From NCBI RefSeq assembly GCF_000949135.2, contig NZ_JTAN02000003.1:434001-498000 (forward strand): DNA of 64,000 nucleotides, given 5' to 3'. Positions 2,952-15,834 of this stretch are shown here, piece after piece (positions within the stretch are counted from its first letter, which is position 1; each line of letters starts with the position of its first letter). This DNA comes from Burkholderia sp. USMB20 (lineage in GTDB: Bacteria > Pseudomonadota > Gammaproteobacteria > Burkholderiales > Burkholderiaceae). The notes below the pieces were generated by a model. It saw only the letters and a program-made list of their open reading frames with translations, did no database searches and was not told the DNA's origin. A program made the translations under genes and the position numbers.

Positions 2952-3047
2952 GGAAGGCATTCGTATCCGGTGGTACGGCCGGGCTTCAAATCCGGTTAGG
3001 GGCGTCAGACGCTCCTGGGTAGGTTCGACTCCTGCTGCCTTCCGCCA
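2952..3047 (+). tRNA. selC: tRNA-Sec (anticodon TCA)
   Basis: The 96-base gene folds as a selenocysteine tRNA: an 8-bp acceptor stem (GGAAGGCA with TGCCTTCC at 3036-3043), discriminator G at 3044, encoded CCA at 3045-3047, anticodon loop CTTCAAA with TCA at 2986-2988, a long variable arm, and the T arm GGTTCGACTCC. The long acceptor and extra arm distinguish it from ordinary tRNAs. It starts only 31 bases after the selB stop, so it may be co-transcribed with selAB or use a promoter inside selB. Its 3' end is repeated at 14008-14021. Confidence 0.97.
3034..3047 (+). repeat. Direct repeat at selC 3' end (candidate attL)
   Basis: The last 14 bases of selC, GCTGCCTTCCGCCA, recur exactly and in the same orientation at 14008-14021. 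Integrases that use tRNA genes typically leave such a duplication of the tRNA 3' end at the far end of the insert. The repeat is short and the similarity does not extend upstream. Confidence 0.5.
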
Positions 3048-3183
3048 CAAGGGTTACAAGATTTTGGTGCTCCGGGCAGTCTTTCCACGGCGGAACATCG
3101 AAATTTACGCAGCGAGCGATGGCGGCAATATCCGCTTTGGGAAGTGCGCCGGGCCGATTTGTGCCGCGTTCGAGTCCTCCGGA

Positions 3184-3213
3184 CGCCTGTCCAAAACTCC
3201 CGCCCATCAGGCG
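3184..3213 (+). terminator. Possible terminator downstream of selC
   Basis: CGCCTG at 3184-3189 can pair with CAGGCG at 3208-3213, and the hairpin is followed by TTTTCTTGCTTTTTC. The loop is long (18 bases), so the fold is only moderately convincing. The 3048-3306 gap otherwise holds no gene that I can recognise. Confidence 0.35.
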
Positions 3214-3306
3214 TTTTCTTGCTTTTTCGAAACGGAATCGCGTGCCTGTCACCCGCCGTCTCCCATTTCGCAATCGACAAGTCTGTTCGCGCGCGTTGGA
3301 ATCAGG

Positions 3307-4788
3307 TCAGTGATCACTACCGCCCAGCGCCTTGTATAAGTCCATCCGGTTGTTGAGTCGATGCAGGCGGTTCAGCGCGACGGCGCTCTGCGCGTCGCGC
3401 AGCCGCTGCTGCTGGTCGAGCCATGGCCGTACGTCGGTCGCGCCGGCCACGAAGCGGACTCGCGCCAGCGCTTCCGCATGCTGTGCCCACTTGAGCGACA
3501 GCGTGTGCTGTTCGCCTTCGCGTTCGAGCTGCACACGTGCAGACAATACGTTTTCGACCTCGCCGAGCGCGGTGTGCAACCGCTGGCGGAAAGCGACGAC
3601 TGCTTCCTCGTACTCCGTCTGCGACACCTTGATCTTCAGTCGCATCGAATTCCATTCGATGAGCGGCAGCGAGAGCCCGAGGCCGAGCATCGCGATCGGA
3701 TTCGACAGCACGCGCTCGAGGCTCGTGCTCGACGTGCCGAAGGAACTTGTCAGCGTGAACGAGGGATAGAATCTTGTGCAGGCGAAGTCGAGGTTCGCGA
3801 GTGATTCGCGCAGCCGGAATTCCGCTTCACGGAGATCCGGGCGTCGACCGAGCAGATCCGCAGGCACGCCCGCAGGCACCGCCGGCAGCGGCCGGTCGGG
3901 CAGCGCGGTCAGCTCTGCGGCTTTCGCCTGCGGCGGCCTGTCGAACAGGATCGCAAGCGCGTGACGTTTCACGGTGCGTTGCTGGATCAGATGCGTCTGA
4001 GCCGCGCGCTGCGCGGACACGCTCAGCTCGGCCTGTGTAACGTCGAACCCGGACACCGCGCCCGCCGCATGGCGCGCGCGCACCAGCGCAAGCGTGCGCT
4101 CCGCATACGTGATGCTTGCGTCGCCGAGCGCGATCTGCTGGTTCAGATAGCCGATCTCCCAGTACAGCGTGGCCGTCGCGCCGATCAACGAGAGCCGCGC
4201 CGCGTCGCGATTGGCCTGCGTCGCGTTGGCGCTCCAGCGCGCCGCATCGCGCAGCGCGGCGAGCTTGCCCCAGAGGTCGAGTTCGTAGCTGAGCATGCCG
4301 GACAGATTGCTCATGCGCGACGTTCGATGTGAATCGAGCGTGCGCGGCACGCTGTCATTTTCGTCAAAACTGCGCGACATGCCTTCGTTGCCGCCGAGCG
4401 AGTGCGACACGCTGCCGGCGCCCTCGTGCGTGACGTTCGGCGTCAGATTGGTCGCGACGAGTCCCGCCTGCAGGCGTGCACGATAGACGCGGATCGTGGC
4501 AGCAGCGAGGTCATTGTTGACATCGAGCGCGTCGGCGATCAGCCGGTCGAGCACCGGGTCGCCGAAGCCGCGCCACCAGTCGGCCGGGATCGGCGAGGTA
4601 GCAAAGGGCGCGGATGCGCTCGACGCAGCGGAAGCGGGCGCCGTGCCGGCCGCGTCGTACGTGGTCCATTGCGCGGGCAGGTTCACGGCGGGTAGCGGCT
4701 GGCGACGCGCGTTTGCGCAGCCGGCGAGCAGCGCGGCTGCGCATGCGAGCGCGAGCACGCTGCGAGGGGCGGTCGGGATGCAGATCAT
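3307..4788 (-). CDS. NodT-family outer-membrane efflux lipoprotein
   Basis: This is the outer-membrane channel of a tripartite pump (OprM/CusC/TolC type). The 493-residue protein starts MICIPTAPRSVLALAC and has a lipobox LAGC, so the cysteine should be lipidated after signal peptidase II cleavage. Two repeated outer-membrane efflux segments follow, with the typical RPDLREAEFRLRES sequence near residue 320. An ATG 30 bases upstream is possible, but this start has GAGGT placed correctly and lies just beyond the macB stop. It is the last gene of the leftward macA-macB-nodT group, which begins about 105 bases after the lasso exporter gene. The protein could serve macrolides, peptides or siderophores; the lasso peptide is an inference from position. 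Confidence 0.9.
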   Translation of the reverse strand: MICIPTAPRSVLALACAAALLAGCANARRQPLPAVNLPAQWTTYDAAGTAPASAASSASAPFATSPIPADWWRGFGDPVLDRLIADALDVNNDLAAATIRVYRARLQAGLVATNLTPNVTHEGAGSVSHSLGGNEGMSRSFDENDSVPRTLDSHRTSRMSNLSGMLSYELDLWGKLAALRDAARWSANATQANRDAARLSLIGATATLYWEIGYLNQQIALGDASITYAERTLALVRARHAAGAVSGFDVTQAELSVSAQRAAQTHLIQQRTVKRHALAILFDRPPQAKAAELTALPDRPLPAVPAGVPADLLGRRPDLREAEFRLRESLANLDFACTRFYPSFTLTSSFGTSSTSLERVLSNPIAMLGLGLSLPLIEWNSMRLKIKVSQTEYEEAVVAFRQRLHTALGEVENVLSARVQLEREGEQHTLSLKWAQHAEALARVRFVAGATDVRPWLDQQQRLRDAQSAVALNRLHRLNNRMDLYKALGGSDH

Positions 4789-4795
4789 CGCGACC

Positions 4796-6847
4796 TCAAT
4801 CGCGCGCGAGCGCATCAATCGGATCGAGCCGCGCCGCGTTGCGCGCGGGCATGAAGCCGAAGACGATGCCGATCAGCGTCGAACACAGGACTGCGGTGAC
4901 GATCGAGCCGACAGAGAACACCATTTTCCATTGGGTGACAAACAGCGAAAAGATGAAGCTCATGCCGAACGACAGCACGATCCCGATCGCGCCGCCCATC
5001 AGGCATACCATCACGGACTCGACGAGGAACTGTTGCATGATATCGCTCTGCCGCGCGCCGACCGCCATCCGGATGCCGATTTCGCGCGTGCGCTCCGTGA
5101 CCGACACGAGCATGATGTTCACCACTCCGATCCCGCCGACGATGAGCGAGATCACCGCGATCAGCGACAGCAGCAGCGCGATCGACTGGCCGGTCTTCGC
5201 GGTCGTCTTGGCTACGCTGTCCAGGTTGTACGTGAAGAAATCCTTGCGCCCGTGGCGCTGAGTCATCAGTTTCACAAGGCTGTTCTCGGCGGCCTTGCTC
5301 GGCTGGCCGTCGCGTACGCGTACGGTGATACTGCCGAAATGGGGTTGGCCGAACAGCCGGCCGCTCGCGGTCGTGTACGGTACCCATACGTTCAGGTCCT
5401 TCATGTCGCCGAACGCGCTCTTCTTGTCCGCCGTCACGCCGATCACGATGCACGGCAGGTTGTCGACGAGGATCACCTCGCCGAGCGGATTCGGGTTCGC
5501 GCCGAACAGCTTGCGGCGCGTGTTCTGGTCGATCACCGCGACCGGTGCCTGACGACGCACGTCATCCATGCTGAAACCGACACCCAGTGTGAAGTTCATT
5601 CCGCGCACGTCGAAGAAGCGCTCGCCGACACCGCTCACGAGCGCATTCACGTCGATATTTCGGTACCGCAGCAGCAGGCTGCGCGCCGTTTCGGGCGTCG
5701 CGCCGTCGATGTAGTGCTGCTCGGCGAGGGCGGCCACGTCGGCGGCCACGAGCGTCTGGATCGTGCCTGCCTGGCTGTCGCCCCAGTCGCGGCCCGGGTA
5801 GATGCCGATCGTGTTGGTACCCATACTGGCGATTTCGTCGAGCATGTAGCGCTTCGCGCCTTCACCGATCGCGGCGATCGACACGACCGACGTGATGCCG
5901 ATGATTATGCCGAGCATCGTCAGGATCGTTCGCAGCCGGTGCGATACGAGTGCGAGCCAGGCCATCCGGAACGCCTCGGCGAAGCTGCCGGCACTCGCCG
6001 ACCACTGGCGCGGGCGAAGCGGCGGGGCAACCAGTGCGTCCGCTGAGGCGGCTCGGACGCCGCGATCGGCCGACGCGTTTGCCTGCGCGGTTCGGTCGCC
6101 GGCGACGGTGGGCGACGCGTCGGCAGCATGCGCCGGGGTCGGCGCGCCATCCTCGACCGGCGAGTTTGGTCGGTCCGCGACGATCTCGCCGTCGTGGATC
6201 TCGATGATGCGGCGCGCGTGCGCGGCGACCTGCTCGTCGTGCGTGACGATGATCACCGTATGGCCGAGCGCATTCAGTTCGCGCAGGATCCGGATGACGT
6301 CCTGACCGCTTTTCGAATCGAGTGCGCCCGTCGGCTCGTCGGCAAGGATCACTTCGCCGCCGTTCATCAGTGCGCGTGCGATGCTGACGCGCTGCTGCTG
6401 GCCGCCGGACAGCTGGCTCGGCCGGTGGCCGGCGCGTTCCGTAAGCCCGAGGCGAGCAAGCAGGTGCTCGGCGCACGCGCGCCGGGCAGCATGCGCGCTC
6501 CCCGCATAGATAGCCGGCATCTCGACGTTTGCCCCCGCATTGAGATACGGCAGCAGGTGGTAACGCTGGAAGATGAAGCCGAAGTGCTCGCGCCGCAATT
6601 GAGCGAGCTCGTCCGCGTCGAGGTCGCGCGTCTCGCGGCCGCCGACCCGGTAGCTGCCAGCGCTCGGGTGGTCCAGGCAGCCGAGCATGTTCATCAGCGT
6701 CGACTTGCCGGAACCCGACGCGCCGACGATTGCGACGATCTCGCCAGCGTCGATCGACAGATTGACGTCTTTCAGCGCGATCACATCCCGATCGCCGGCC
6801 GGAAAGCGCCGTGTGACGTTGGTGAACTGCAGCAGCGGCCGGGTCAT
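4796..6847 (-). CDS. macB: MacB-type ABC transporter, ATPase-permease
   Basis: MacB couples cytoplasmic ATP hydrolysis to expulsion of periplasmic substrate through the MacA/TolC tunnel. The N-terminal ATPase has Walker [10 protein letters not shown] (about residues 42-50), signature LSGGQQQRV and Walker [14 protein letters not shown] first membrane segment comes near residue 305, then a large periplasmic domain, then three C-terminal membrane helices (residues about 560-675). The family is usually around 650 residues; this one has 683, with a low-complexity Ala/Asp-rich linker at about 230-285 between ATPase and membrane domain. It follows macA after 2 bases and runs into the NodT gene with 7 bases between stop and start. 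Confidence 0.93.
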
Positions 6848-6849
6848 CG

Positions 6850-8031
6850 CTAAATTTCCGAACCGGGAGTGTCGTCTGCCGCTTCGCCAATCACGACGCG
6901 CTCGCCGGCCATCAGGCCGTCGCGCACCTCGATCTTCACGTTGTTGTTCAGTCCGGTGAGGACCTGGCGCGTGACAACCTTGTCGTTGGCGCCAATCACG
7001 CGCACCGCATAGCGGCCGTCCGGCGCCCGCGCGCCGAGCGCGGCAACGGGAATGCTAAGCGCTTGGCGCGCGGTCTCGAGCACCACGCTGACCTGCGCGG
7101 TCATCGAGATGCGCAGCCGATGGCCGGGATTCGGCACCTCGAACAGTGCGTTGTAGAACACCGCAGTATTCGGCTTGGACAAGCCGCCGCCCATACCGGC
7201 GAGCGAACTCTGCGTGTCGAGGAAGTTCTGCGGCGCGGGCTCGATTGCTCGCAGCTTGCCGTAGTAGCGCTTGTCGGGGTCGCCGAGGATCGTGAAGTAC
7301 GCGGTCTGGCCGGGGTGCACGCGGATGACGTCGGCTTCGGACACCTGCGCCTTGACGGTCATCGTGTCGACGTCGGCGAGCTTCAGGATCACGGGCGCCT
7401 GCTGCTGCGCGAGTACGGTTTGCCCCTCCTGCGTGACGATCGCGACGACTTCGCCGTCCATCGGCGCGACGATTCGCGTGTAGCCGACGTTGGCCTGCTC
7501 GGTCTCGATCTGGATGCGGGCCGCGCGGATCTGTGCGTCGAACGACGCAAGGGTTGCACGCTGCACGTCGAGTGTGGCCTGCGCAGCTTCGTAGTCCTGC
7601 CGTGAGGTCGCGTCGTCCGGCAGCATTTGCCGTTGGCGGCGGAATGCGAGCTCGGCCTGAGCGAGCTGCGCGGCCGTCGCGCGTCTTTGCGCGACGAGGT
7701 TCTGCTCGCTGATTTTCGCTTGACGCAGCGCGTTCTTCGGGAGCACCGGGTCGATCTCCGCCAGCCATTGCCCCTTCTTGACCTTGTCGCCGAGTTTGAC
7801 CTTCAGCGACTTGAGCTGGCCGGTCACCTGCGCGCCGACGTCGACCCCCTTGAAGGCCTGCAGCGTGCCCGTCGCGAGCACCGCACTCTCGAGATCGCCG
7901 CGCTCGACCTTCGCGCTCAGGTATTGCGGACGCTTGTCCGGCGCGAGCCAGCGCCACGCGAACGCAATGAGCAAGACAGTGACGGCGAGGCCGGTAGCCA
8001 CGTAGCACCCGCGTTGGGGGGATTTCTTCAT
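6850..8031 (-). CDS. macA: MacA-type periplasmic adaptor
   Basis: MacA is the membrane-fusion protein that links MacB to the outer-membrane channel and stimulates its ATPase. The 393-residue protein has one N-terminal membrane anchor (about residues 11-30), a split lipoyl domain (GVDVGAQVTGQLKSL and TRIVAPMDGEVVAI), a helical hairpin rich in Ala/Gln/Arg at about 100-180, and beta-barrel plus membrane-proximal domains to the end. It is the first gene of the pump group and lies downstream of the lasso exporter on the same strand, with 105 bases and no clear terminator between, so read-through from the lasso operon is plausible. Confidence 0.92.
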   Translation of the reverse strand: MKKSPQRGCYVATGLAVTVLLIAFAWRWLAPDKRPQYLSAKVERGDLESAVLATGTLQAFKGVDVGAQVTGQLKSLKVKLGDKVKKGQWLAEIDPVLPKNALRQAKISEQNLVAQRRATAAQLAQAELAFRRQRQMLPDDATSRQDYEAAQATLDVQRATLASFDAQIRAARIQIETEQANVGYTRIVAPMDGEVVAIVTQEGQTVLAQQQAPVILKLADVDTMTVKAQVSEADVIRVHPGQTAYFTILGDPDKRYYGKLRAIEPAPQNFLDTQSSLAGMGGGLSKPNTAVFYNALFEVPNPGHRLRISMTAQVSVVLETARQALSIPVAALGARAPDGRYAVRVIGANDKVVTRQVLTGLNNNVKIEVRDGLMAGERVVIGEAADDTPGSEI

Positions 8032-8136
8032 GAGAGCAATGTGCTTCGGGGGTGTACGAGCGGCCGTCTGTAATGAAATGGAAATGGACTGGTTGAAATG
8101 CAGAAAGCTTCGGAGTTTCTGGGTTCCGGGGCGAAT

Positions 8137-9975
8137 TCAGCGCGGGCGTCGTCGATCGAATCCCTTCGAGTTCCTCCCCACCAGCACATCGGACCGCCGT
8201 ATTGCGGCAGGACCATCCGGAACGCTGTCGTGATAGAACATGGCTTGACTATGAAACATCCGCGCGTACTTCCCGTTTCGGGCGATGAGTTCGTCGTGAG
8301 ACCCCTCCTCAACGAGATGGCCCTTGTCGAGCACGACGATGCGATCGACGAATCGCGTCAACGCGAGACGGTGGCTAACGATGACGGTCGTCCGTTGCTC
8401 GGCCAGTTCGAGAATGAGTCGCATGATGTCCGCTTCGGACTCTGGATCGAGTGCTGAAGTGGGTTCGTCGAAGACGAGCAGGTCGGCTTCGTCGGCATGT
8501 GCCATCGCACGCGCGATGGCTAGCCTCTGCCACTGCCCCCCTGAAATATCGGTTCCGCCCGCCGTCTCCGTGGTCAGAGGGGTGTCCGGGCGGCGGCCCA
8601 GGAACTCGAGGCCGACCGCCTTCAGGTATTCGTCGGCTTGCTGCATGTCGTGCTCGACGAGGTTCTCGCGCACGTCGAGCGGAAAGCGCGCAAAGTCCTG
8701 AAACACACCGACCACACGCGGAGGATGATGGGCCGTCGACCACGCCAACACACCTGTCGTCGGCTCGTAGAGCCCGCACAGCAATTTGAGCAGGGTCGTC
8801 TTGCCGGCGCCATTTTCGCCGACGATCGCGATGACCTCTTGATCGCGAATCTCCAGACCGATCTGATCAAGCGCGGCATGTTCGGCGTCGCGGTACCGCA
8901 GACCCACGTTGCGCAGCGTCACGCAGGGTGCGGCCGCCGACGTTTCGCGCACCGGCGGCGGCCGGCGGGCAGGGTCGACCGCCTGCTTCTGCTGCGCAGC
9001 GTGAAGGGCGATCAGCTTGCGGAACGGGCGCACGGCATAGGAAACGCGCAACAGATCGCCGAAGTTGTAGACGATCGCGGCTAACCCGTCTTTCAACTGA
9101 ACGAGCGCGCCGAGCAGGAACGCGAGCTGGGCGATGCTGAACTTGCCGAGCTGAAATCCGTCGATGACGGCATAGAGCGGCAGTCCGAGGCAGACACTTG
9201 CCGCCAGCGACGTCGCGGCGAGCTTGAGCGCGTTGCGCGTGCGTACTCGCTTGATGGTCTCGAGATAGTTGTCGTAGAGACCCTGCCACTTGGCCAGCAG
9301 ACGCCCCTGCATGCGGTAGATGCGCAAGTCCTTGGCGAATTCGGGCTGCGTCAGAACCCGCTCGAGAAGGCGCAGATCGTTGAACGTTGCCGCATGATGC
9401 TCCTGGACATTCCAGCTCTCGCGTTCGGCCCGCGCCCGGAACAGGAGGGGCGGCACCATGCCAGCCAACACGAGGAAGGGAATCCACCATGCCGTTTGCC
9501 CCGTCAGGAGCAGGATCGGAATGATCATCACGGTTCCAATGCAGACTGCATAAAGATGCAGCACAAGGTCACCCACCTGGTCGCTCGCGCCGGCCGCGAG
9601 AATCGCCGTTTCGCGCAGATCGGCATCCTCGTGTATGCCGAGGTTCGGGAACGTCGCGACGATCGAGTTCACATCTCGCTTCAGCAGCATGCGCGCCGAA
9701 TCTCCAAGCGAGTCGACGATGAAGCTCGATATCGCGTTCAATCCATCGTGAAAGCCGCCGAGTATGAAGTAGGCGATGACGAGCGCCATGACAGCGGCTG
9801 CGGCCGCATTGGACGTCAGGCGCTCGATGAGCTGCGCGTTGATGTAGAGCAGCACGCTCGGTATGACGCCGACGACGAGGTTCGACATGATGGCGAGGCT
9901 CAGCGCCCGCGGCGCCGCTCGCCACAGCAGCAATAGCGTCTCGCCGAGATTGTGCAGGATTTCCCAGACTTTCAT
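8137..9975 (-). CDS. Lasso-peptide ABC exporter (D protein)
   Basis: This ABC protein has the exporter layout: N-terminal membrane domain (six helices within residues 1-310) fused to an ATPase. In the 612-residue form starting MKVWEILHNL, Walker A GENGAGKT is at about 386-393, signature ISGGQ at about 477-481 and Walker B LLVFDEP at about 499-505. In lasso clusters such a D protein moves the mature peptide out of the cytoplasm and gives self-immunity. It starts 10 bases after the cyclase stop and is the last of the dedicated lasso genes. I prefer this ATG to one nine codons upstream, which would overlap the cyclase gene and has no better ribosome site. Its substrate is inferred from the neighbours. 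Confidence 0.88.
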   Translation of the reverse strand: MKVWEILHNLGETLLLLWRAAPRALSLAIMSNLVVGVIPSVLLYINAQLIERLTSNAAAAAVMALVIAYFILGGFHDGLNAISSFIVDSLGDSARMLLKRDVNSIVATFPNLGIHEDADLRETAILAAGASDQVGDLVLHLYAVCIGTVMIIPILLLTGQTAWWIPFLVLAGMVPPLLFRARAERESWNVQEHHAATFNDLRLLERVLTQPEFAKDLRIYRMQGRLLAKWQGLYDNYLETIKRVRTRNALKLAATSLAASVCLGLPLYAVIDGFQLGKFSIAQLAFLLGALVQLKDGLAAIVYNFGDLLRVSYAVRPFRKLIALHAAQQKQAVDPARRPPPVRETSAAAPCVTLRNVGLRYRDAEHAALDQIGLEIRDQEVIAIVGENGAGKTTLLKLLCGLYEPTTGVLAWSTAHHPPRVVGVFQDFARFPLDVRENLVEHDMQQADEYLKAVGLEFLGRRPDTPLTTETAGGTDISGGQWQRLAIARAMAHADEADLLVFDEPTSALDPESEADIMRLILELAEQRTTVIVSHRLALTRFVDRIVVLDKGHLVEEGSHDELIARNGKYARMFHSQAMFYHDSVPDGPAAIRRSDVLVGRNSKGFDRRRPR

Positions 9976-9985
9976 GGCGGCTGGC

Positions 9986-11917
9986 TCAGCCCGCAAGGGC
10001 ACGTAGTGGACGGAATTTCAAATGCTTGACGACAGTAGCCCGCGCTCCGGAGAATCTTACGAGCCAGGCTTCAAGATCGGTCACGCCGCGAATATAGTGG
10101 TACTGAGTGCCGAGCTGTGCGTTAGGGTCTTCCGTCGCGACAATATAGGCCGTCAGGTGGCGGCGGAAACAAGCCTGATCGACGAGTCCCCAGTCATTCA
10201 GAATCATGGGGCGATCGGTCAGGCGCAGCAGCGCCCCCGCGCTATTGCGAAACATTCGCCGTGCCATCAGCGCATAGCTCGTCTTGCTCTTTTTCTCCGT
10301 CGCGAAATCCGGCAGCGCTCCGCGATAGGCGTTTCGCGCCAGCATTTTCGACGTCGCGTAGGGATTCGCGCGATTCAGGCGTCTATAGTCGTGGTGAAGA
10401 TGCGGCGGACACGCGAGTGCGAACGAGATCATCCGCGGGTCGAGGAACGGATGGGAGTGGGTGCAGTAGACATTCAAGGTGTCGAAGTAAGTCGCCCGCG
10501 GAAACAGCATTGCCCTGATGTAGTCGTGGCCCAGGTATCGCGTCCGCGAATGCCTCGCGTGCCCCTTTCCGGCGCGCGCATGGCGCCGCGCTCCCGCGAG
10601 CAGGCACTTTCCGAGATAGTCGGGCAATATCGCGCGCCCTTCGGTCGATTCCTTCTCAAGCCACTCGCGTCGCCCCAGGCGTGGCGACAGCGAGGTCAGC
10701 ATCTTGTGAAAGTAGGCTCGCGAGAAGGCTCGAATGCCGAGGTTTTCCGTCACGTAGTCGTGGAGTGCTTCGATCCCGTCATGCTCGCGAATGGAATCGA
10801 GAATCCAGGGATGCGTCGACTCGCCAAGAATGACGTCTCCCCCTTCGCCCGTCATGACGAGCGAAACATCGTGATCCTGGAACACGCGTGCGCAGGCTTC
10901 CTTGGCGAGCGGATTGGCGGCTGCGTCGGGCCCGTCGACATAGGCGCAGGCATCGTCCAGCGCCGGAAGACGCAAAAAATCGTCGGCGTAGATGATCCGA
11001 TGAGGAACGTCGCAGTGCCGAACGAGCGCCTCGACGAGCTTGTCATCCTGGCTCATCGCGAGATCCGCATCCCTGAAGCCCATGTTGGCGCAGAAGGGCG
11101 CGCTGCGCCCGTGCACCGAGAGGGTCGCCCCGAGGACGGTATTGGAGTCAACGCCGCCGCTCAGCATGATCCCGCCCGCGCCGGCTTCGATGCGGTCGAG
11201 CACGCAGGCGTCGAGGCGAGCCCGAAACACCTGCTCGAAGTCCTCCCGACGGGAGATCGCGCTGTCAAGCCGGAAAGCGACATCGTCGCGCGCCTGCGTC
11301 AGCTCGAACGTCTGGCCTGTTCTGTCGATGCTCAGAACGCCACTCGCCGGCATCTTCAGTACCTCTGCGAAGAATGTCGCTTCGCCGGCCAATTCGTTTT
11401 CGCCGACCATGACGGATTGCGTCAGGAACTCGATGCAAGACTCGCGCCTGATTTTCAGCGGCACGAGGCGGCATAGCAAGAGCAGCCGCAGATCGTTGCT
11501 CGCTACCCATTGCCCGTTTTTGCCGCGCCAGTAGTAAATCGGGTGCGTCGCATAATGGTCGGTCATCAGGATCACGCGTTCGGGCCGGATCGACGCGTAG
11601 CTGAACTCGCCGAGCACGACGTTTTTCGATGGATCGAGCGCAAGCGCGTCCTGGCGGAACGACGAATGGAGCGTGCCGCTGTGCAGGTCGCGCAACCAAC
11701 CGCTATACGCGGTGTCGCCGGCCGATGCGTCGATCCGTCGGGGGCTCCGGCATTCGGCTTCGCACAGGCGTATATCCATCTCGATCAGAGTCGCCCAGCC
11801 GTGAGCCATCCGCTTCGCGCTGTCGACCTGAACATCGCCCAAGGCATCGAAGAGGTCGTCGATGTAGGCGTCGACGTCCACCGTTGTGCCGTTCATCACT
11901 ATCGTCCAGAGTTTCAT
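9986..11917 (-). CDS. Lasso-peptide macrolactam synthetase (C protein, asparagine-synthetase-like)
   Basis: The protein is homologous to class B asparagine synthetases and in lasso systems adenylates the side chain of an Asp/Glu in the core, allowing attack by the new N-terminus to form the isopeptide ring. The N-terminal glutaminase-like domain starts MKLWTIVMNG and lacks the catalytic Cys2 of true amidotransferases, as usual for these cyclases. The C-terminal domain has the ATP pyrophosphatase loop LSGGVDSNTVLG (SGGVDS at about 253-258) and GEGGDVILGE. Length is 643 residues. Its ATG overlaps the stop of the B2 gene (ATGA), showing translational coupling with the leader protease. With the PqqD-like and transglutaminase-like genes beside it, a lasso function is much more likely than free asparagine synthesis. 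Confidence 0.92.
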   Translation of the reverse strand: MKLWTIVMNGTTVDVDAYIDDLFDALGDVQVDSAKRMAHGWATLIEMDIRLCEAECRSPRRIDASAGDTAYSGWLRDLHSGTLHSSFRQDALALDPSKNVVLGEFSYASIRPERVILMTDHYATHPIYYWRGKNGQWVASNDLRLLLLCRLVPLKIRRESCIEFLTQSVMVGENELAGEATFFAEVLKMPASGVLSIDRTGQTFELTQARDDVAFRLDSAISRREDFEQVFRARLDACVLDRIEAGAGGIMLSGGVDSNTVLGATLSVHGRSAPFCANMGFRDADLAMSQDDKLVEALVRHCDVPHRIIYADDFLRLPALDDACAYVDGPDAAANPLAKEACARVFQDHDVSLVMTGEGGDVILGESTHPWILDSIREHDGIEALHDYVTENLGIRAFSRAYFHKMLTSLSPRLGRREWLEKESTEGRAILPDYLGKCLLAGARRHARAGKGHARHSRTRYLGHDYIRAMLFPRATYFDTLNVYCTHSHPFLDPRMISFALACPPHLHHDYRRLNRANPYATSKMLARNAYRGALPDFATEKKSKTSYALMARRMFRNSAGALLRLTDRPMILNDWGLVDQACFRRHLTAYIVATEDPNAQLGTQYHYIRGVTDLEAWLVRFSGARATVVKHLKFRPLRALAG

Positions 11918-12378
11918 AGCGAGGCAACCCATCCCGTGACAGCCGTTTCAGGATTCATGCGCGTCAGCGCCCGATATTCGTTCAAATCCATGCGCCCTGG
12001 ATTGACGATTTCCGGCACGGATCCCGTGCGACACAATTCGATCCACGCGTGTCCGACGACCTTCTCATCCTGCCTTTTGACGCCGATCACCAGGTCGCTT
12101 GGAATGCCATGCAGAAATGCCAGGGCCTGCACGACGATGCTGGCCGAATAGCACGACGCGCCACCCATTTCGAGCAGGTCGGCCTGGTAAATGGAATCGC
12201 AGACTTCCTGAAGATAAGGTTGGTCGATACGGCCGACCGCGCCCGCGTACCTGCCTCTAACCGCGCCGGGAAAGATCGACTTGAAAATACCGAGATAGGC
12301 GTCGCTGACCGGCCGACCAAGCAACATGGCTCGCACGAGGCTATGGGTGAGAAAGATGTACGCGCCGTCATTTTTCAT
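11914..12378 (-). CDS. Lasso-peptide leader protease (B2, transglutaminase-like)
   Basis: B2 proteins cut the leader from the precursor so that the cyclase can close the ring. The 154-residue protein shows the cysteine-protease pattern of the family: Cys76 in GGASCYSAS and His110 in VGHAWIE. The third residue of the triad is not obvious: Glu123, Asn126 and Asp131 lie in the expected stretch. It is a stand-alone B2, whereas classical proteobacterial clusters such as capistruin and microcin J25 have a fused B protein. The start codon lies inside the end of B1 (11-base overlap) and the stop overlaps the cyclase start, so B1, B2 and C are translated as a coupled unit. Confidence 0.9.
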   Translation of the reverse strand: MKNDGAYIFLTHSLVRAMLLGRPVSDAYLGIFKSIFPGAVRGRYAGAVGRIDQPYLQEVCDSIYQADLLEMGGASCYSASIVVQALAFLHGIPSDLVIGVKRQDEKVVGHAWIELCRTGSVPEIVNPGRMDLNEYRALTRMNPETAVTGWVASL

Positions 12379-12667
12379 AAAGGGCGCCCAGATCGATTAA
12401 TGTGGTGACTCCATCTAAAATCAATTTCTTATCGGTGGTCGTTAGTGCTCGGCTACCTGCAATCTCATTAATAAAATCCTCCGCGCGTAGCCCCGTGTGC
12501 AATCTCCGAGAGATCGTCAAAATATCGACTGCTACCCCTGACAGACCGAAATAACTATTCTTTGTCTCGCTATAGAAGATCGTCTCACCATCAAGTAAAA
12601 CGCATTCGAGCGAATAGTTCGGATAAAGCAATTTCGCGTCTTGTTCTGTCGAGTGCTTGTGTGACAT
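12368..12667 (-). CDS. Lasso-peptide leader-binding protein (B1, PqqD-like RRE)
   Basis: The 99-residue protein has the PqqD fold pattern: a beta hairpin containing VLLDGETIFYSETKNSYFGLSG, then helices ending DGVTTLIDLGALYEK. Such RiPP recognition elements bind the precursor leader and present it to B2 and C. The start MSHKHSTEQ is chosen because GGTGGG lies at a suitable distance; a longer frame to 12736 would run through the stem-loop at 12692-12730. Codon use and base composition are clearly more AT-rich than in the flanking chromosome. It follows the precursor gene after 91 bases, and B2 starts before it ends. Confidence 0.87.
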   Translation of the reverse strand: MSHKHSTEQDAKLLYPNYSLECVLLDGETIFYSETKNSYFGLSGVAVDILTISRRLHTGLRAEDFINEIAGSRALTTTDKKLILDGVTTLIDLGALYEK

Positions 12668-12691
12668 GCATGCCCACCATGAGAGCATTCG

Positions 12692-12730
12692 CGAGGCACG
12701 CGCCCAGCCGATACTTGGGCGCGTGCCTCG
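12692..12730 (-). promoter_or_regulatory. Perfect 15-bp stem-loop between precursor gene and B1
   Basis: CGAGGCACGCGCCCA (12692-12706) pairs perfectly with TGGGCGCGTGCCTCG (12716-12730) around a 9-base loop. In the leftward transcript it falls 28 bases after the precursor stop and 24 bases before the B1 start, and has no U-tract after it. A stable hairpin here would be expected to protect the precursor message or cut read-through, giving more precursor than enzymes. Similar hairpins are known between A and downstream genes in other lasso clusters. Which of the two it does cannot be told from sequence. Confidence 0.75.
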
Positions 12731-12758
12731 TATCATCGTGTGACTCAGCGCGCTACTG

Positions 12759-12881
12759 TTACATACCTTTCACGCCGCGCCCGTAGAGTCCATCGCCTGG
12801 AATAGATTTCTTGGACAGAATGACGGCAAGAAACGAGCCATAGGCGACGACTTTGGTGGGTTGAATCGAGACAGCATTCAT
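12759..12881 (-). CDS. Lasso-peptide precursor (A), 40 residues
   Basis: The ORF has an ideal ribosome site (AAGGAG, six bases before ATG) and encodes a 22-residue leader, beginning MNAVSIQPTKVVAY and ending GSFLAVIL, and the proposed core SKKSIPGDGLYGRGVKGM. The leader end matches the usual lasso spacing: Gly at -8, Phe at -6 and a branched residue (Ile) at -2, where Thr is normal. Asp30 is the only acidic residue in the whole peptide; with the cut after Leu22 it is core residue 8, giving a Ser1-Asp8 eight-residue ring. Tyr11 and Arg13 of the core are the likely steric plugs. The gene is the first of the operon, directly upstream of B1, B2, C and D. Cuts giving a 7- or 9-residue ring are possible but fit the leader less well. 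Confidence 0.82.
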   Translation of the reverse strand: MNAVSIQPTKVVAYGSFLAVILSKKSIPGDGLYGRGVKGM

Positions 12882-12967
12882 TTCACTCTCCTTCAGTAAG
12901 GAAGCATTTGCGAAAACAACTGTTCTTGATGTTGCACTTCAGGTGTTGCGGTTGAAATGCAATCGTA

Positions 12968-12995
12968 AGTATATAGATGGGATCGGGAAAGTAAA
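12968..12995 (-). promoter_or_regulatory. Putative sigma-70 promoter of the lasso operon
   Basis: On the minus strand, TTTACT (12990-12995) and TATACT (12968-12973) are separated by 16 bases, in the most AT-rich stretch of the window and about 87 bases upstream of the precursor ATG. No operator repeat is obvious, so conditions of expression are not predictable. Confidence 0.55.
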
Positions 12996-13404
12996 CAATT
13001 TATTTCGGTGTGCTATATTTGAGATAATTCGTCGCGAGATATGTCACTATTTTTCTGGAGATGGATGGAGATAATAGGCATGGGGAATGAATCTATTGCC
13101 GTTCCAACGTCAGTCGCCGCGACGCAAGATTAATGATTGCAGGTCGAACGACCAAACCTGGCTTCATTTTTCGATCACCGTGGTGTCGTCAAGTCGATCG
13201 ATCAAGCGTAGATCGTGCGTCGCGTATCTGTCGCATAGTCGACGCAAATCGGGCGGCAGCGCGTTGGAGAGTTCGCGATTTAGTGCGCATGCCGGGAATG
13301 TAGCTCTCGCCGCGTTTGTCGATGCCTTGCCGGCGCGCAGCTCGCCCAACGTGGTTGCGCGATGCGGGCGGGCAGCTATCGCCGGAGGCTGTCGGTGGGT
13401 TTGA
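12996..13404. other. Low-GC leader region and gene remnants
   Basis: No intact gene is recognised. A 17-codon ORF on the plus strand (13080-13133, MGNESIAVPTSVAATQD) has a GGAG ribosome-site-like sequence and could be a small peptide or the start of the MFS gene now broken at 13405-13791. On the minus strand a frame ending at 13164 closes with LPPDLRRLCDRYATHDLRLI, which faintly resembles the C-terminus of a sulfotransferase-like protein. Both readings are weak. The region probably records decay at the edge of an inserted segment. Confidence 0.35.
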
Positions 13405-13791
13405 CGTCGCGGATTTCGCGGCGGGTCGACCGGAATGACGACGGACCTCGTCGCGTTGCTTGGGATTGCCTTCGGTTTACGTTTTCGGGCTTGGACGATC
13501 ATTGGCCATCAGCTGGCCGCACCTGCACAGGTTGGCATCGCGACTGCCTCAGTTCGAGCGCTGCGAACGATGGGTGGATTGATCGGTGTTGCGGTGACCG
13601 GCGGGCTAATCTCGTTGACTCATCGGGCGGCCGCGTCAAGCGGTGCGCCGACGCTGGATGGAAGCGGCGGTTTGGCGAATGCGATTCGCTTTGGACACGC
13701 CGCGGTGTATATGTCCTCGGCGGCCACATTGCTGATCAGCTCGCGGGTCTCCACGGTATCGTTCAATGTGGCCAATCGTGGATCACGGTAG
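13405..13791 (+). pseudogene. Remnant of an MFS (DHA2-type) drug transporter
   Basis: The readable part contains PAQVGIATASVRALRTMGGLIGVAVTGGLI, which matches the conserved C-terminal-half motif of 14-helix EmrB/QacA exporters (asVRxxRtlGGxiGvAv). Only about 120 codons are open and the preceding 300 or so residues are missing, so this is a fragment of a gene that is about 480-500 codons when whole. There is no convincing ribosome site at the first ATG (13435). Its presence between the lasso operon and the repeat at 14008 fits a region that has suffered insertion and deletion. Confidence 0.7.
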
Positions 13792-14007
13792 TCGCGTGCG
13801 CGGCATGTCTGCCGCTGAGGGAATGCCCATGACGTTGTCGCATTGGTCAGCCCGCCCGCCACGCATCTGTGCGAAGCGGCAAGCGCTTCTCGGCATGCAG
13901 CGAGTGATGCGGGTCGCAGTTGAACTGGCGCGAAGCATGGGTAGGAGGAGACTCGCAACGATGGAAGTCAAACCCTGGCGAGGCTTCCCGCCCGACAGTT
14001 GTAGTCG

Positions 14008-14021
14008 GCTGCCTTCCGCCA
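14008..14021 (+). repeat. Direct repeat of selC 3' end (candidate attR)
   Basis: GCTGCCTTCCGCCA is identical to bases 3034-3047 of selC, in the same orientation. It is followed after 32 bases by a transcription terminator and then genes of ordinary high GC, which is what the far edge of a tRNA-targeted insertion should look like. Confidence 0.5.
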
Positions 14022-14053
14022 TTCCGCCGCCATGCCCGTCATGCAGCGACCAT

Positions 14054-14081
14054 GAAAAAGGCCCGCAAAATACGCGGGCCT
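14054..14081 (-). terminator. Rho-independent terminator after small lipoprotein gene
   Basis: AGGCCCGC (14059-14066) pairs with GCGGGCCT (14074-14081) across a 7-base loop, and the leftward transcript continues with five U residues. It stops transcription of the lipoprotein gene before the lasso-side remnants. Confidence 0.85.
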
Positions 14082-14088
14082 CGTGCAA

Positions 14089-14250
14089 TCAGCAATTGCC
14101 TTTCTTCGCCTGTCCGGGCGGGCAGAACCCGTTCCCCGGCCCGCCCTGCGGTGCCACGACGACCGGCGGACCCGGCACGTATGCGACGCACCCGCTGAGC
14201 GCGCCGACCACGCTCGCCGCGGCGAGCAATGCGATAACCCCTTTCTTCAC
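14089..14250 (-). CDS. Small secreted lipoprotein, 53 residues
   Basis: The product starts (GTG) MKKGVIALLAAASVVGAL and has the lipobox LSGC, leaving a mature lipopeptide of about 33 residues rich in Pro, Gly and Val that ends CPPGQAKKGNC with two more cysteines. The GTG is chosen because GGGAGAACGAA precedes it and the signal peptide begins exactly there; upstream codons in the same frame are Arg/Ser-rich antisense sequence. A strong terminator follows. Function is unknown; small lipoproteins of this form are common in Burkholderia envelopes. Confidence 0.8.
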   Translation of the reverse strand: MKKGVIALLAAASVVGALSGCVAYVPGPPVVVAPQGGPGNGFCPPGQAKKGNC

Positions 14251-14272
14251 TTCGTTCTCCCGTTTATCGAGG

Positions 14273-14292
14273 AAAGGGCCGTGAGGCCCTTT
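14273..14292 (-). terminator. Hairpin terminator after DUF4382 gene
   Basis: AAAGGGCC and GGCCCTTT form an 8-bp stem with a GTGA loop between the DUF4382 gene and the small lipoprotein gene. The U-tract is short in the leftward direction (TTTCC is partly in the stem), so efficiency is uncertain. Confidence 0.6.
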
Positions 14293-14311
14293 CGATGATG
14301 CTGCCGATGCG

Positions 14312-15472
14312 TCAGAAGCTGAAATTGACGTTCGACTGGCTGGTCGTCGCGTTGACGTTCGTCGATTGCGTTGCGCCCGACGCTGCGTCCGCTTCGATCG
14401 TGTATTGTGCCGCGGCGGTCGGCGATGCGGCCAGCGCGACCGGCAGCGAGCCCGAGTACGTGCCGACGATCGGCGCGGCCGTGGGCACGTTGAGCGCATA
14501 CGTACCCGTATCCAGGTTCGCGGTGATCGACGTGATCTCGTACGCGTTCGCATCGACGGTCTGCAACGCGCGCACGAACGCGTTGGCGCTTGCCGTCACC
14601 GTGCCGCCGACCGTGCTCATCGTCGATGCCGGCAGCGTGATCGGGGCAGTCGACGCCGACACGGCCGTGGTCGTGTTCACCACGACCGGGACCGAGCGGA
14701 CGATGCCGGACGCGAAGTTGTTCTGCACGATCACGACGTCGTAGTTGCCTTGCGTCGAGCTCTGGATCAGCGGCGACAGCACGAATTTCCCGGTGTTGTC
14801 GGCAACCGTGCCGCGGACCACCTTGCCGCCTTGTTCCGCATACACGGTCGCGCCGGCTTCGGCCGAGGCGACATAGCCGGAGATCGCGCCGCTCACGACG
14901 GTCGGGATCGCGGTGACGACCGGCTTCAGCGCATACGTGCCGTTGCCGCGCTGGACGATCGACTTGCACGCGTTGAAGTCGAGCACGAGATCGACGAGCG
15001 TGTTCGGCTGGACCGTGAAAGGCTGGATGATCTTGTAACCGCTTTGCGTCGCGCTCGGCGTGGCGAGCGCCTGTTCCGTGCCGCCCGTCGGGACGACCGA
15101 GTTCGCGAGGGTGTTGCCCTGGTTCGGCGCGAGAACGAGGCGGATCTGCTGATACTGGCCGGCCGGCAAGGCGGTCTGGCCGATATCGGCGAGCACGCCG
15201 TTGGTCAGCGACAGCAGGTCGATCTTCTGCGGTGTCGCCAGCGTGATGGTCGACCAGCCGGCGTCGTTATCGGAAGCATTCCCATTCGCATTGACGCGGA
15301 CCTGAGAAACGGTCACGAATACGTGATCGAAGCCGCATGACGGTGCATCGGTCATCGCGACATGCAGCGTGCCGGTTTGCGGGCTGCCGCCATCGTCGCC
15401 GCCGCCGCATCCTGCGAGTGCGAACGGCACCGCCGCCGCGCATAGTGCGGCCTTCCAGAATGTGTTGTTCAT
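14312..15472 (-). CDS. DUF4382-domain lipoprotein
   Basis: The 386-residue protein begins MNNTFWKAALCAAAVPF and has lipobox LAGC, followed by GGGDDGG as a flexible tether. Residues about 35-170 match the DUF4382 pattern (GTLHVAMTDAPSCGFDHVFVTV, then KIDLLSLTNG and LPAGQYQQIRL). A carboxypeptidase-regulatory-like beta domain follows (SGYVASAEAGATVYAEQGG), and the tail is Ser/Thr/Ala-rich. It is predicted to sit on an envelope surface, perhaps in adhesion or matrix binding; no enzyme motif is visible. The start follows GGGGAC and is preceded by unrelated sequence. Confidence 0.85.
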   Translation of the reverse strand: MNNTFWKAALCAAAVPFALAGCGGGDDGGSPQTGTLHVAMTDAPSCGFDHVFVTVSQVRVNANGNASDNDAGWSTITLATPQKIDLLSLTNGVLADIGQTALPAGQYQQIRLVLAPNQGNTLANSVVPTGGTEQALATPSATQSGYKIIQPFTVQPNTLVDLVLDFNACKSIVQRGNGTYALKPVVTAIPTVVSGAISGYVASAEAGATVYAEQGGKVVRGTVADNTGKFVLSPLIQSSTQGNYDVVIVQNNFASGIVRSVPVVVNTTTAVSASTAPITLPASTMSTVGGTVTASANAFVRALQTVDANAYEITSITANLDTGTYALNVPTAAPIVGTYSGSLPVALAASPTAAAQYTIEADAASGATQSTNVNATTSQSNVNFSF

Positions 15473-15834
15473 TGTTTTGTCCCCTTTCGAGGTTATTGTG
15501 CGTGCAACGAAGCATAGCCGCGGGGAACGCCCACAGTATGAGCAGCTTTGAAACGAACCGTAATTCCTGCGTCGGAGCGTAAGAACCGCTGCCCGTCGAT
15601 CGATATTCGCGACGCAATGGCAGGCAATAAGGCTCACAGCGAAGGAATCCTGTCCGGATCGATCGAGCAGGGCATGAGTCGCCGGGACACGGCATGTTCG
15701 CGATCGGCAAAAACTTGATCGGTGAAAGCACTAAATCCGCCCTGATTATTTCGCCGCTATAGTCGAATCACGAATGGTAGATGCGAGCGCCATGCGCCGC
15801 CGCCATTCAGGCAAAGACTGTAGACGGGTGCTGT
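15473..15834. other. Intergenic region between divergent genes
   Basis: This stretch separates the DUF4382 gene (leftward) and a small membrane protein gene (rightward) and should hold both promoters. A TATAGT hexamer at 15758-15763 could be a -10 element for the rightward gene, but no matching -35 is seen. Nothing else is recognised. Confidence 0.4.

What the first reader, a model, noticed from the sequence alone, without database searches (positions are those of the whole stretch)
8137..12881. Complete lasso-peptide biosynthetic cluster with an unannotated 40-residue precursor
Seen: in leftward order a 40-codon gene with an ideal ribosome site, a PqqD-like protein, a Cys/His transglutaminase-like protein, an asparagine-synthetase-like protein lacking Cys2 and with an SGGVDS loop, and an ABC exporter. 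Known: exactly this set (A, B1, B2, C, D) makes and exports lasso peptides. Inference: the locus makes a new lasso peptide; its core does not resemble the Burkholderia examples I know (capistruin, ubonodin, burhizin).
Basis: partly seen in the sequence, partly recalled or inferred. Interest (0 to 1): 0.85.

Follow-up and report, generated by a model that had tools for sequence, protein, structure and literature searches.

The report
Lariocidin-type lasso antibiotic cluster, Burkholderia
A soil-type Burkholderia carries an intact gene cluster predicted to make a knotted peptide closely related to lariocidin, a recently discovered antibiotic that jams bacterial ribosomes, but without the usual self-protection gene beside it.

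Summary
In detail: five intact, overlapping or closely spaced minus-strand genes (12881 to 8137) encode a 40-residue precursor, an RRE protein (B1), a transglutaminase-like peptidase (B2), an asparagine-synthetase-like cyclase (C) and an ABC exporter (D). The precursor hits NCBIfam's lariocidin-family lasso peptide model (E 1.1e-21). The predicted core SKKSIPGDGLYGRGVKGM matches lariocidin SKKSKPGDGKFGRGVKRG at 13 of 18 positions, keeping Ser1-Asp8, Pro6-Gly7 and an aromatic residue 11, but has 4 instead of 7 Lys/Arg. Best reading: a ribosome-targeting lasso antibiotic (class near certain, target inferred). Its Burkholderiaceae/Photorhabdus clade differs from the lariocidin clade: Ile instead of Thr at leader position -2, and no acetyltransferase or clostripain near the cluster (0 of 7 loci; 7 of 9 other leader-bearing loci have both). 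Self-protection must then differ, probably export by D, possibly helped by a MacA-MacB-NodT pump inserted with the cluster beside tRNA-Sec. The precursor is rare (2 of 65 Burkholderia species genomes). New member of a known kind, with a testable open point on immunity.

The parts
12759..12881 (-). precursor A, 40 aa: 22-aa leader (YGSF at -9, Ile -2) + 18-aa core SKKSIPGDGLYGRGVKGM
   Evidence: NF050021 E 1.1e-21, NF050022 core E 8.7e-12; leader/core tabulated with 15 relatives
12692..12730 (-). strong hairpin between A and B1 (15-pair outer stem), possible attenuator/3' end that favours precursor over enzymes
   Evidence: MFE z -3.65, 0 of 200 shuffles as good; MFE at least 1.6 sd below mononucleotide shuffles in 15 of 16 loci folded, Chitinasiproducens no better than shuffles; covariation support modest: 4 of 15 pairs with changes on both sides in 5 distinct rows, 33 of 500 shuffles reach that, sliding by 2 columns gives 4 too
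12368..12736 (-). B1, RRE (leader-binding) protein; likely start at 12667 (inferred)
   Evidence: AF2 model pLDDT 78; six best Foldseek PDB hits are lasso B1 chains, TbiB1 E 6.8e-4; profile hit TbiB1 E 0.0047
11914..12378 (-). B2, transglutaminase-like leader peptidase
   Evidence: PF13471 E 1.2e-12; NF033537 lasso B2 35.8 bits, cut-off 33; C and H invariant
9986..11932 (-). C, asparagine-synthetase-like lasso cyclase without Cys2, SGGVDS loop
   Evidence: PF00733 E 6.1e-19; sub-threshold to lasso cyclase models; 33% to the cyclase of a cluster encoding the exact lariocidin core
8137..10002 (-). D, ABC exporter, GTG start
   Evidence: PF00005 E 2.2e-25
6850..8031 (-). MacA-like periplasmic adaptor, possible accessory
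   Evidence: PF13437 E 2.4e-15; 105-nt gap after D; inside the same insertion
4796..6847 (-). MacB-like ABC transporter, possible accessory
   Evidence: PF12704 E 1.3e-45
3307..4818 (-). NodT/TolC-type outer-membrane efflux protein, possible accessory
   Evidence: PF02321 E 7e-35
12968..12995 (-). promoter-like site TTTACT-16-TATACT upstream of A
   Evidence: consensus scan only; 4 sites in the region against 1.6 (sd 1.2) in shuffles
2952..3047 (+). tRNA-Sec (selC), left edge of the insertion
   Evidence: ARAGORN, Rfam RF01852 74.8 bits; B. arboris lacks window 3048-15710 here

Best explanation
The locus makes, cyclises and exports an 18-residue lasso peptide of the lariocidin family. B1 binds the short leader (probably through the YGSF element nine residues before the core), B2 cuts after Leu(-1) with Ile at -2, C activates Asp8 and joins it to the amine of Ser1 around the tail, and D exports the product. 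The peptide (predicted monoisotopic mass 1830.977, [M+2H]2+ 916.496) most likely acts like lariocidin, binding the head of the 30S subunit and blocking translocation in competitors. The producer is protected by export through D, perhaps completed across the outer membrane by the adjacent MacA-MacB-NodT pump, rather than by the acetyltransferase used in the lariocidin clade. Shown here: gene content, family membership of A, B1 and B2, conservation, no acetyltransferase or clostripain detected near the cluster. Inferred: cleavage site, ring, target, role of D and of the pump in immunity.
For: NF050021/NF050022 hits well over cut-off. Core 13/18 identical to lariocidin (sequence from a table passage of PMC12427821), keeping Ser1, Asp8, Pro6, Gly7 and an aromatic at 11; the preprint PMC11451635 (results section read) reports the Ser1-Asp8 lactam, Pro6/Gly7 near the A-site tRNA and Phe11 stacking on U531. 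The same mass routine gives 1870.065 for lariocidin against the reported 1870.06. B1 and B2 tests met. Homologous C in 15 of 15 leader-bearing genomes, within about 4 kb of the precursor in the 15 loci drawn. YGxF at -9 in 16 of 16 precursors; Ile(-2) in 7, Thr(-2) in 9. GNAT and clostripain in 7 of 9 leader-bearing loci outside the clade and 0 of 7 inside it.
Against: No product, structure or target was measured. C is far below curated lasso-cyclase cut-offs and has no solved relative by sequence at E 0.001. Three basic residues of lariocidin (K5, K10, R17) are I, L and G here, so uptake or ribosome affinity may be weaker. A MacB at 75% identity or more is listed in 45 of 65 Burkholderia genomes, 43 of them without the precursor; lasso-adjacent MacBs form no supported clade; two clade Photorhabdus loci have no pump and the Cupriavidus IDO locus only a fragment. 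So the pump's role is weakly supported.
Confidence: 0.72

Rival explanations
1. A lasso peptide of this fold is made but has lost the ribosome as target (too few positive charges) and serves another role, such as signalling or inhibition of a narrow set of relatives.
For: 4 Lys/Arg against 7 in lariocidin; positions 5, 10 and 17 all non-basic here; uptake of lariocidin depends on membrane potential (preprint PMC11451635) and is ascribed to charge (review PMC13352647, passages); the clade lacks the acetyltransferase.
Against: The residues named as tRNA/16S contacts (P6, G7, aromatic 11) are kept; triculamin, presumed to act on the ribosome, also lacks K10 (sequence in a table passage of PMC13192320); R13, G14 and K16 are unchanged.
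Confidence: 0.2
2. The cluster is decaying or silent, a relic of transfer.
For: Rare (2 of 65 Burkholderia species genomes); B2 of strain Bp8963 has an in-frame stop; Cupriavidus necator C39 keeps only the last 118 aa of C plus D; A/B1 GC 0.48-0.50 against 0.68 for the window.
Against: All five genes are open and full-length in the window and in IMCC1007, with ribosome site and promoter-like site; core and catalytic residues conserved across genera.
Confidence: 0.08
3. Protection comes mainly from the MacA-MacB-NodT pump, which is a genuine cluster component (compatible with the best explanation, which leaves this open).
For: Co-directional, 105-nt gap, inside the same insertion beside tRNA-Sec, collinear in IMCC1007; the same pump lies next to the cluster, in convergent orientation, in Bp8963; MacA and MacB (no NodT found) likewise in Chitinasiproducens; a MacA fragment remains near the cluster in Cupriavidus IDO.
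Against: Common in Burkholderia without the cluster; no supported clade of lasso-adjacent pumps; none in two Photorhabdus loci; MacB lies in two reading frames in Chitinasiproducens.
Confidence: 0.25

Closest known systems
Lariocidin (lrc cluster, Paenibacillus sp. M2; lariocidin family NF050021)
   Same: 18-aa core, 13/18 identical; Ser1-Asp8 ring predicted; short N-terminal leader with YGxF at -9; separate B1 and B2; homologous cyclase (33% to that of P. polymyxa ISL-58, whose core is identical to lariocidin)
   Different: 4 not 7 Lys/Arg; C-terminus GM not RG; Ile not Thr at -2; one exporter D where P. polymyxa has two; no GNAT and no clostripain found, hence no lariocidin-B type second ring expected
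Triculamin (Streptomyces; NF050031)
   Same: similar core (SKKSKPGDGIRGKGVRG)
   Different: triculamin-type precursors start at the core and carry a C-terminal extension; cyclase barely related (20 bits)
Capistruin, ubonodin, burhizin (other Burkholderia-group lasso peptides)
   Same: lasso class and A-B-C-D logic (recalled)
   Different: core not alike and a fused B protein, both from recall; not compared by a tool here
Bradymonas BsfA (first validated Ile(-2) lasso precursor; PMC10368454, abstract and outline seen)
   Same: Ile at leader position -2
   Different: kinase-containing cluster, YxxPxL leader motif; core not compared

Membership tests
Lariocidin family lasso peptide | precursor over the curated cut-off of NF050021 and NF050022 | tested here: met
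   76.4 bits (cut-off 40) and 45.1 bits (cut-off 27)
Lariocidin family lasso peptide | 18-aa core with Ser1 and Asp8 able to form an 8-residue macrolactam | tested here: met
   sequence; the bond itself was not observed
Lariocidin family lasso peptide | threaded lasso product | not testable with these tools
   needs MS/NMR
Lariocidin family lasso peptide | binds 30S and blocks translocation | not testable with these tools
   only residue conservation was examined
Lariocidin family lasso peptide | cluster-borne GNAT self-resistance (common, not defining) | tested here: not met
   0 of 7 clade loci against 7 of 9 others with an HMM of nine GNATs, those seven being among its seeds; upstream DNA is short in IMCC1007 and Bp8963 (contig ends)
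Lasso peptide biosynthetic cluster | B1 is a leader-binding RRE | tested here: met
   Foldseek: five TbiB1 chains and 6jx3 as top six hits; binding itself not tested
Lasso peptide biosynthetic cluster | B2 transglutaminase-like Cys protease | tested here: met
   NF033537 over cut-off; Cys/His invariant
Lasso peptide biosynthetic cluster | C is an AsnB homologue lacking the glutaminase Cys2 | tested here: met
   PF00733, SGGVDS and no Cys2
Lasso peptide biosynthetic cluster | C over the curated cut-off of NCBIfam's lasso cyclase models | tested here: not met
   54.3 of 525 bits (NF033535) and 60.1 of 300 (NF033561); all 8 members of the alignment match NF033535 at E 0.001 or better, but their bit scores are not shown
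Lasso peptide biosynthetic cluster | Thr at leader position -2 | tested here: not met
   Ile in 7 of 16 leader-bearing precursors, all of this clade; Ile(-2) is documented elsewhere, so it is not a strict criterion

The most novel reading that the evidence does not exclude
A Burkholderiaceae/Photorhabdus lineage makes ribosome-targeting lariocidin-type lasso peptides of reduced charge with a stripped cluster (A-B1-B2-C-D only) and protects itself without acetylating the peptide, by export alone (D, or D plus the co-transferred MacA-MacB-NodT pump), with a B1/B2 pair re-tuned to an Ile(-2) leader.
Probability: 0.4. Interest if true: 0.6.

Novelty: new member of a known kind. Interest (0 to 1): 0.42.

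Why it matters
Lariocidin is a new type of ribosome inhibitor with broad activity. A natural variant from a Gram-negative soil bacterium that replaces three basic residues and lacks the known self-resistance gene nearby would tell which charges the activity needs, and whether producers can live without acetylating the peptide. It also extends the leader-bearing branch to Burkholderiaceae; the text of the lariocidin preprint names Alpha- and Gammaproteobacteria, Bacillota and Actinomycetota (its tree figure was not seen).

Tried and rejected
Generic lasso reading: sharpened after NF050021. Cleavage giving a Lys1, Leu1 or Gly1 core: rejected because all 16 leader-bearing precursors align as [S/A/R]KKS with Asp8. 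Missing B1: rejected. Plasmid-borne copy: no precursor hit in 72,556 plasmid records at E 10, only the Cupriavidus necator remnant for C. Repeat of the tRNA end at the other side of the insertion: only the tRNA's own copy in the window, 3 mismatches allowed; no integrase was noticed among the ORFs read, but none was searched for by profile. Co-evolution of the MacB pump with the cluster: no support in a quick tree of 22 MacBs (18 of the cluster-free Burkholderia ones fetched). Target-site protection through 16S rRNA: could not be tested; no 16S found in 6 of 6 genomes by Rfam, and a 30-base 16S pattern in 1 of 8 (P. asymbiotica). A genome-wide search with the P. polymyxa acetyltransferase found remote GNATs (23-32%) in 7 of 8 other genomes, none in Cupriavidus IDO, one of them in the P. 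caribbeanensis cluster; general GNATs are common, so this says little. Pattern hits in Patescibacteria: no SGGxDS protein in the DNA held, left open. In the phylum sample two of three matches are below the family's cut-off: one is a leaderless triculamin-type precursor, one looks like chance.
Full report
What is there. Five open minus-strand ORFs lie end to end between 12881 and 8137: a 40-aa precursor with a strong ribosome site, B1, B2, C and D. Pfam and NCBIfam name B2 (Transglut_core3 E 1.2e-12; lasso B2 model 35.8 bits, cut-off 33), C (Asn_synthase E 6.1e-19) and D (ABC transporter). B1 has no Pfam or NCBIfam hit, but its AlphaFold model (pLDDT 78 from an 8-row alignment) matches six lasso B1 chains first (five of TbiB1, best E 6.8e-4; 6jx3), and a profile search of PDB sequences gives TbiB1 first (E 0.0047). 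C reaches only 54 and 60 bits with the NCBIfam lasso cyclase models (cut-offs 525 and 300).

What the precursor is. The 40-aa product is a member of NCBIfam's 'lariocidin family lasso peptide' (NF050021, E 1.1e-21, 76.4 bits, cut-off 40), with the core model NF050022 matching residues 22-40. Aligned with relatives the core starts at Ser23: SKKSIPGDGLYGRGVKGM. Lariocidin is SKKSKPGDGKFGRGVKRG (table of PMC12427821, passage seen): 13 of 18 identical. Predicted lasso mass is 1830.977; the same routine reproduces lariocidin (1870.065 against 1870.06 reported).

Family context. A DNA pattern for KKSxPGDGxxxxGx[KR] found 46 stretches in the collection of 84,980 species genomes. By reading them, 15 are leader-bearing precursors like this one, 15 are leaderless triculamin-type precursors that begin M[SA]KKS and carry a C-terminal extension, and 16 look like chance. 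All 15 leader-bearing genomes hold a homologue of the window's C, within about 4 kb of the precursor in the 15 loci drawn. The nearest are Burkholderia sp. IMCC1007 (C 99%), Cupriavidus sp. IDO (83%), Burkholderia sp. Bp8963 (79%), Photorhabdus asymbiotica and australis (63, 62%) and Chitinasiproducens palmae (59%); Xenorhabdus innexi, P. caribbeanensis and the Bacilli are at 30-33% (one piece of the split B. paralicheniformis C at 37%). In a tree of 23 cyclases (B. paralicheniformis left out) these six and the window form one clade (100/100); the program warns of long branches, among them the one that leads to this clade, and the join with Xenorhabdus/P. caribbeanensis is weak (80/81). P. polymyxa ISL-58 encodes exactly the lariocidin core (18 of 18), so its cluster serves as the reference. 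Across Burkholderia, 2 of 65 species genomes have the precursor; in an even sample of 398 genomes of the phylum 3 match, 1 over the cut-off, and that one is IMCC1007.

What differs. (a) Leader: YGxF sits at -9 in 16 of 16; position -2 is Thr in 9 and Ile in 7, the 7 being this clade. Ile(-2) has been validated in another lasso precursor (PMC10368454, abstract and outline seen). (b) Charge: 4 Lys/Arg in the window, IMCC1007, Bp8963 and IDO cores, 5-6 in Chitinasiproducens and Photorhabdus asymbiotica/australis, 6-7 elsewhere. (c) Self-resistance and tailoring: an HMM from nine GNATs near such clusters finds strong members in 7 of 9 leader-bearing loci outside the clade (a weak one, 24 bits, in P. 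tarimensis; none in B. glycinifermentans) and in the 7 clade loci nothing better than E 0.77; clostripain likewise 7 of 9 and 0 of 7. The seven GNAT loci are also among the model's own seeds. For the window the first 25 kb were searched, for the others the 16-20 kb fetched; upstream DNA is short for IMCC1007 and Bp8963, where the contigs end. The lariocidin preprint hypothesises that the GNAT gives self-resistance (PMC11451635, results section read), and a review says acetylation was since shown to be self-resistance in triculamin and lariocidin (PMC13352647, passages seen). So this clade probably protects itself otherwise. By analogy with McjD in microcin J25 (recalled), export through D is the simplest answer.

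The pump. MacA, MacB and a NodT-type outer-membrane protein follow D on the same strand (gaps of 105 and 2 nt, then a 23-nt overlap). B. arboris has tRNA-Sec followed, after 81 bases, by the sequence that lies at 15711 in the window, so window 3048-15710 (12.7 kb) is an insertion relative to it, with pump and cluster together (one genome compared in detail); IMCC1007 is collinear at 97% over 13.2 kb. In Bp8963 the pump lies beside the cluster in the opposite direction, and so do MacA and MacB in Chitinasiproducens, MacB there in two frames and no NodT found; in Cupriavidus IDO only a 76-aa MacA piece was found, in the two clade Photorhabdus loci none. Against a specific role: all 65 Burkholderia genomes have MacB-like hits, and the (capped) list shows one at 75% identity or more, whole or in two pieces, in 45 of them; lasso-adjacent ones form no supported clade. 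I give the pump a minority chance of being needed.

Mobility. A, B1 and the upstream DNA are GC-poor (0.50, 0.48, 0.42) against 0.68 for the window. Cluster DNA is 86.6% identical over 4.8 kb in Cupriavidus IDO and 86.2% over 2.2 kb on a C. necator megaplasmid that keeps only the 3' end of C plus D. This fits transfer among Burkholderiaceae. B2 of Bp8963 has an in-frame stop.

RNA element. A stem-loop follows A directly: 15 outer pairs in the window, z -3.65. The folding energy of this stretch is at least 1.6 sd below mononucleotide shuffles in 15 of 16 loci; Chitinasiproducens does not exceed shuffles. In six aligned rows (five distinct; Chitinasiproducens not included) 84% of cells pair and 4 pairs change on both sides; 33 of 500 shuffles reach the latter, and sliding by 2 columns also gives 4, so covariation support is modest. 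It may set the precursor-to-enzyme ratio.

Literature. Searches of the open library for lariocidin (18 papers, all listed) and triculamin (9, all listed), and combinations with Burkholderia or Photorhabdus (20 of 1,113, 20 of 3,152 and 12 of 21 listed), showed no title or abstract start on a Burkholderia lariocidin-type peptide. The final lariocidin paper was not met in these listings, its tree figure was not seen, and the triculamin-like genome-mining paper (PMC12070363) is not held, so an earlier mention cannot be excluded. The IMCC1007 genome note does not contain 'lasso' or 'antiSMASH' in its main text and calls the strain an undescribed species, nearest B. anthina (ANI 91.9%).

Verdict. 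Observation confirmed; interpretation right in class; identity sharpened to the lariocidin family. Ordinary as a cluster, of interest for its missing acetyltransferase and its altered charge.

Noticed in passing
window 2952-3047 and 3048-15710: The cluster and pump sit in a 12.7-kb insertion (relative to B. arboris) directly beside tRNA-Sec (selC) after selA-selB; the tRNA end is not repeated elsewhere in the window.
   Followed up: partly
L027, L029, L030, L036, L040, L042, L043, L044, L049, L050, L054, L058, L059, L062, L067: Leaderless precursors with almost the same core but a C-terminal extension occur in 15 loci, including Lewinella, Chloroflexi, Sinorhizobium and Patescibacteria contigs; four of six inspected have an SGGxDS protein nearby and no HAW (B2-like) motif was flagged; the two Patescibacteria have neither in the DNA held. 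Very different cyclases seem to serve one core.
   Followed up: partly
L024 8018-10220 (Cupriavidus necator C39 plasmid p1): Remnant of the cluster: last 118 aa of C plus nearly all of D, no precursor, B1 or B2 found.
   Followed up: partly
L023 18392-18853 (-): B2 of Burkholderia sp. Bp8963 carries an in-frame stop about two thirds along.
   Followed up: partly
L028 and L055: Xenorhabdus innexi and Photorhabdus caribbeanensis precursors have Arg, not Ser or Ala, as core residue 1 if the register holds, which would be an unusual ring-forming residue.
   Followed up: no
window 14312-15637 (-): DUF4382 gene (PF14321 E 3.5e-40), within the inserted stretch, with similar DNA on Burkholderia and Cupriavidus megaplasmids.
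   Followed up: no
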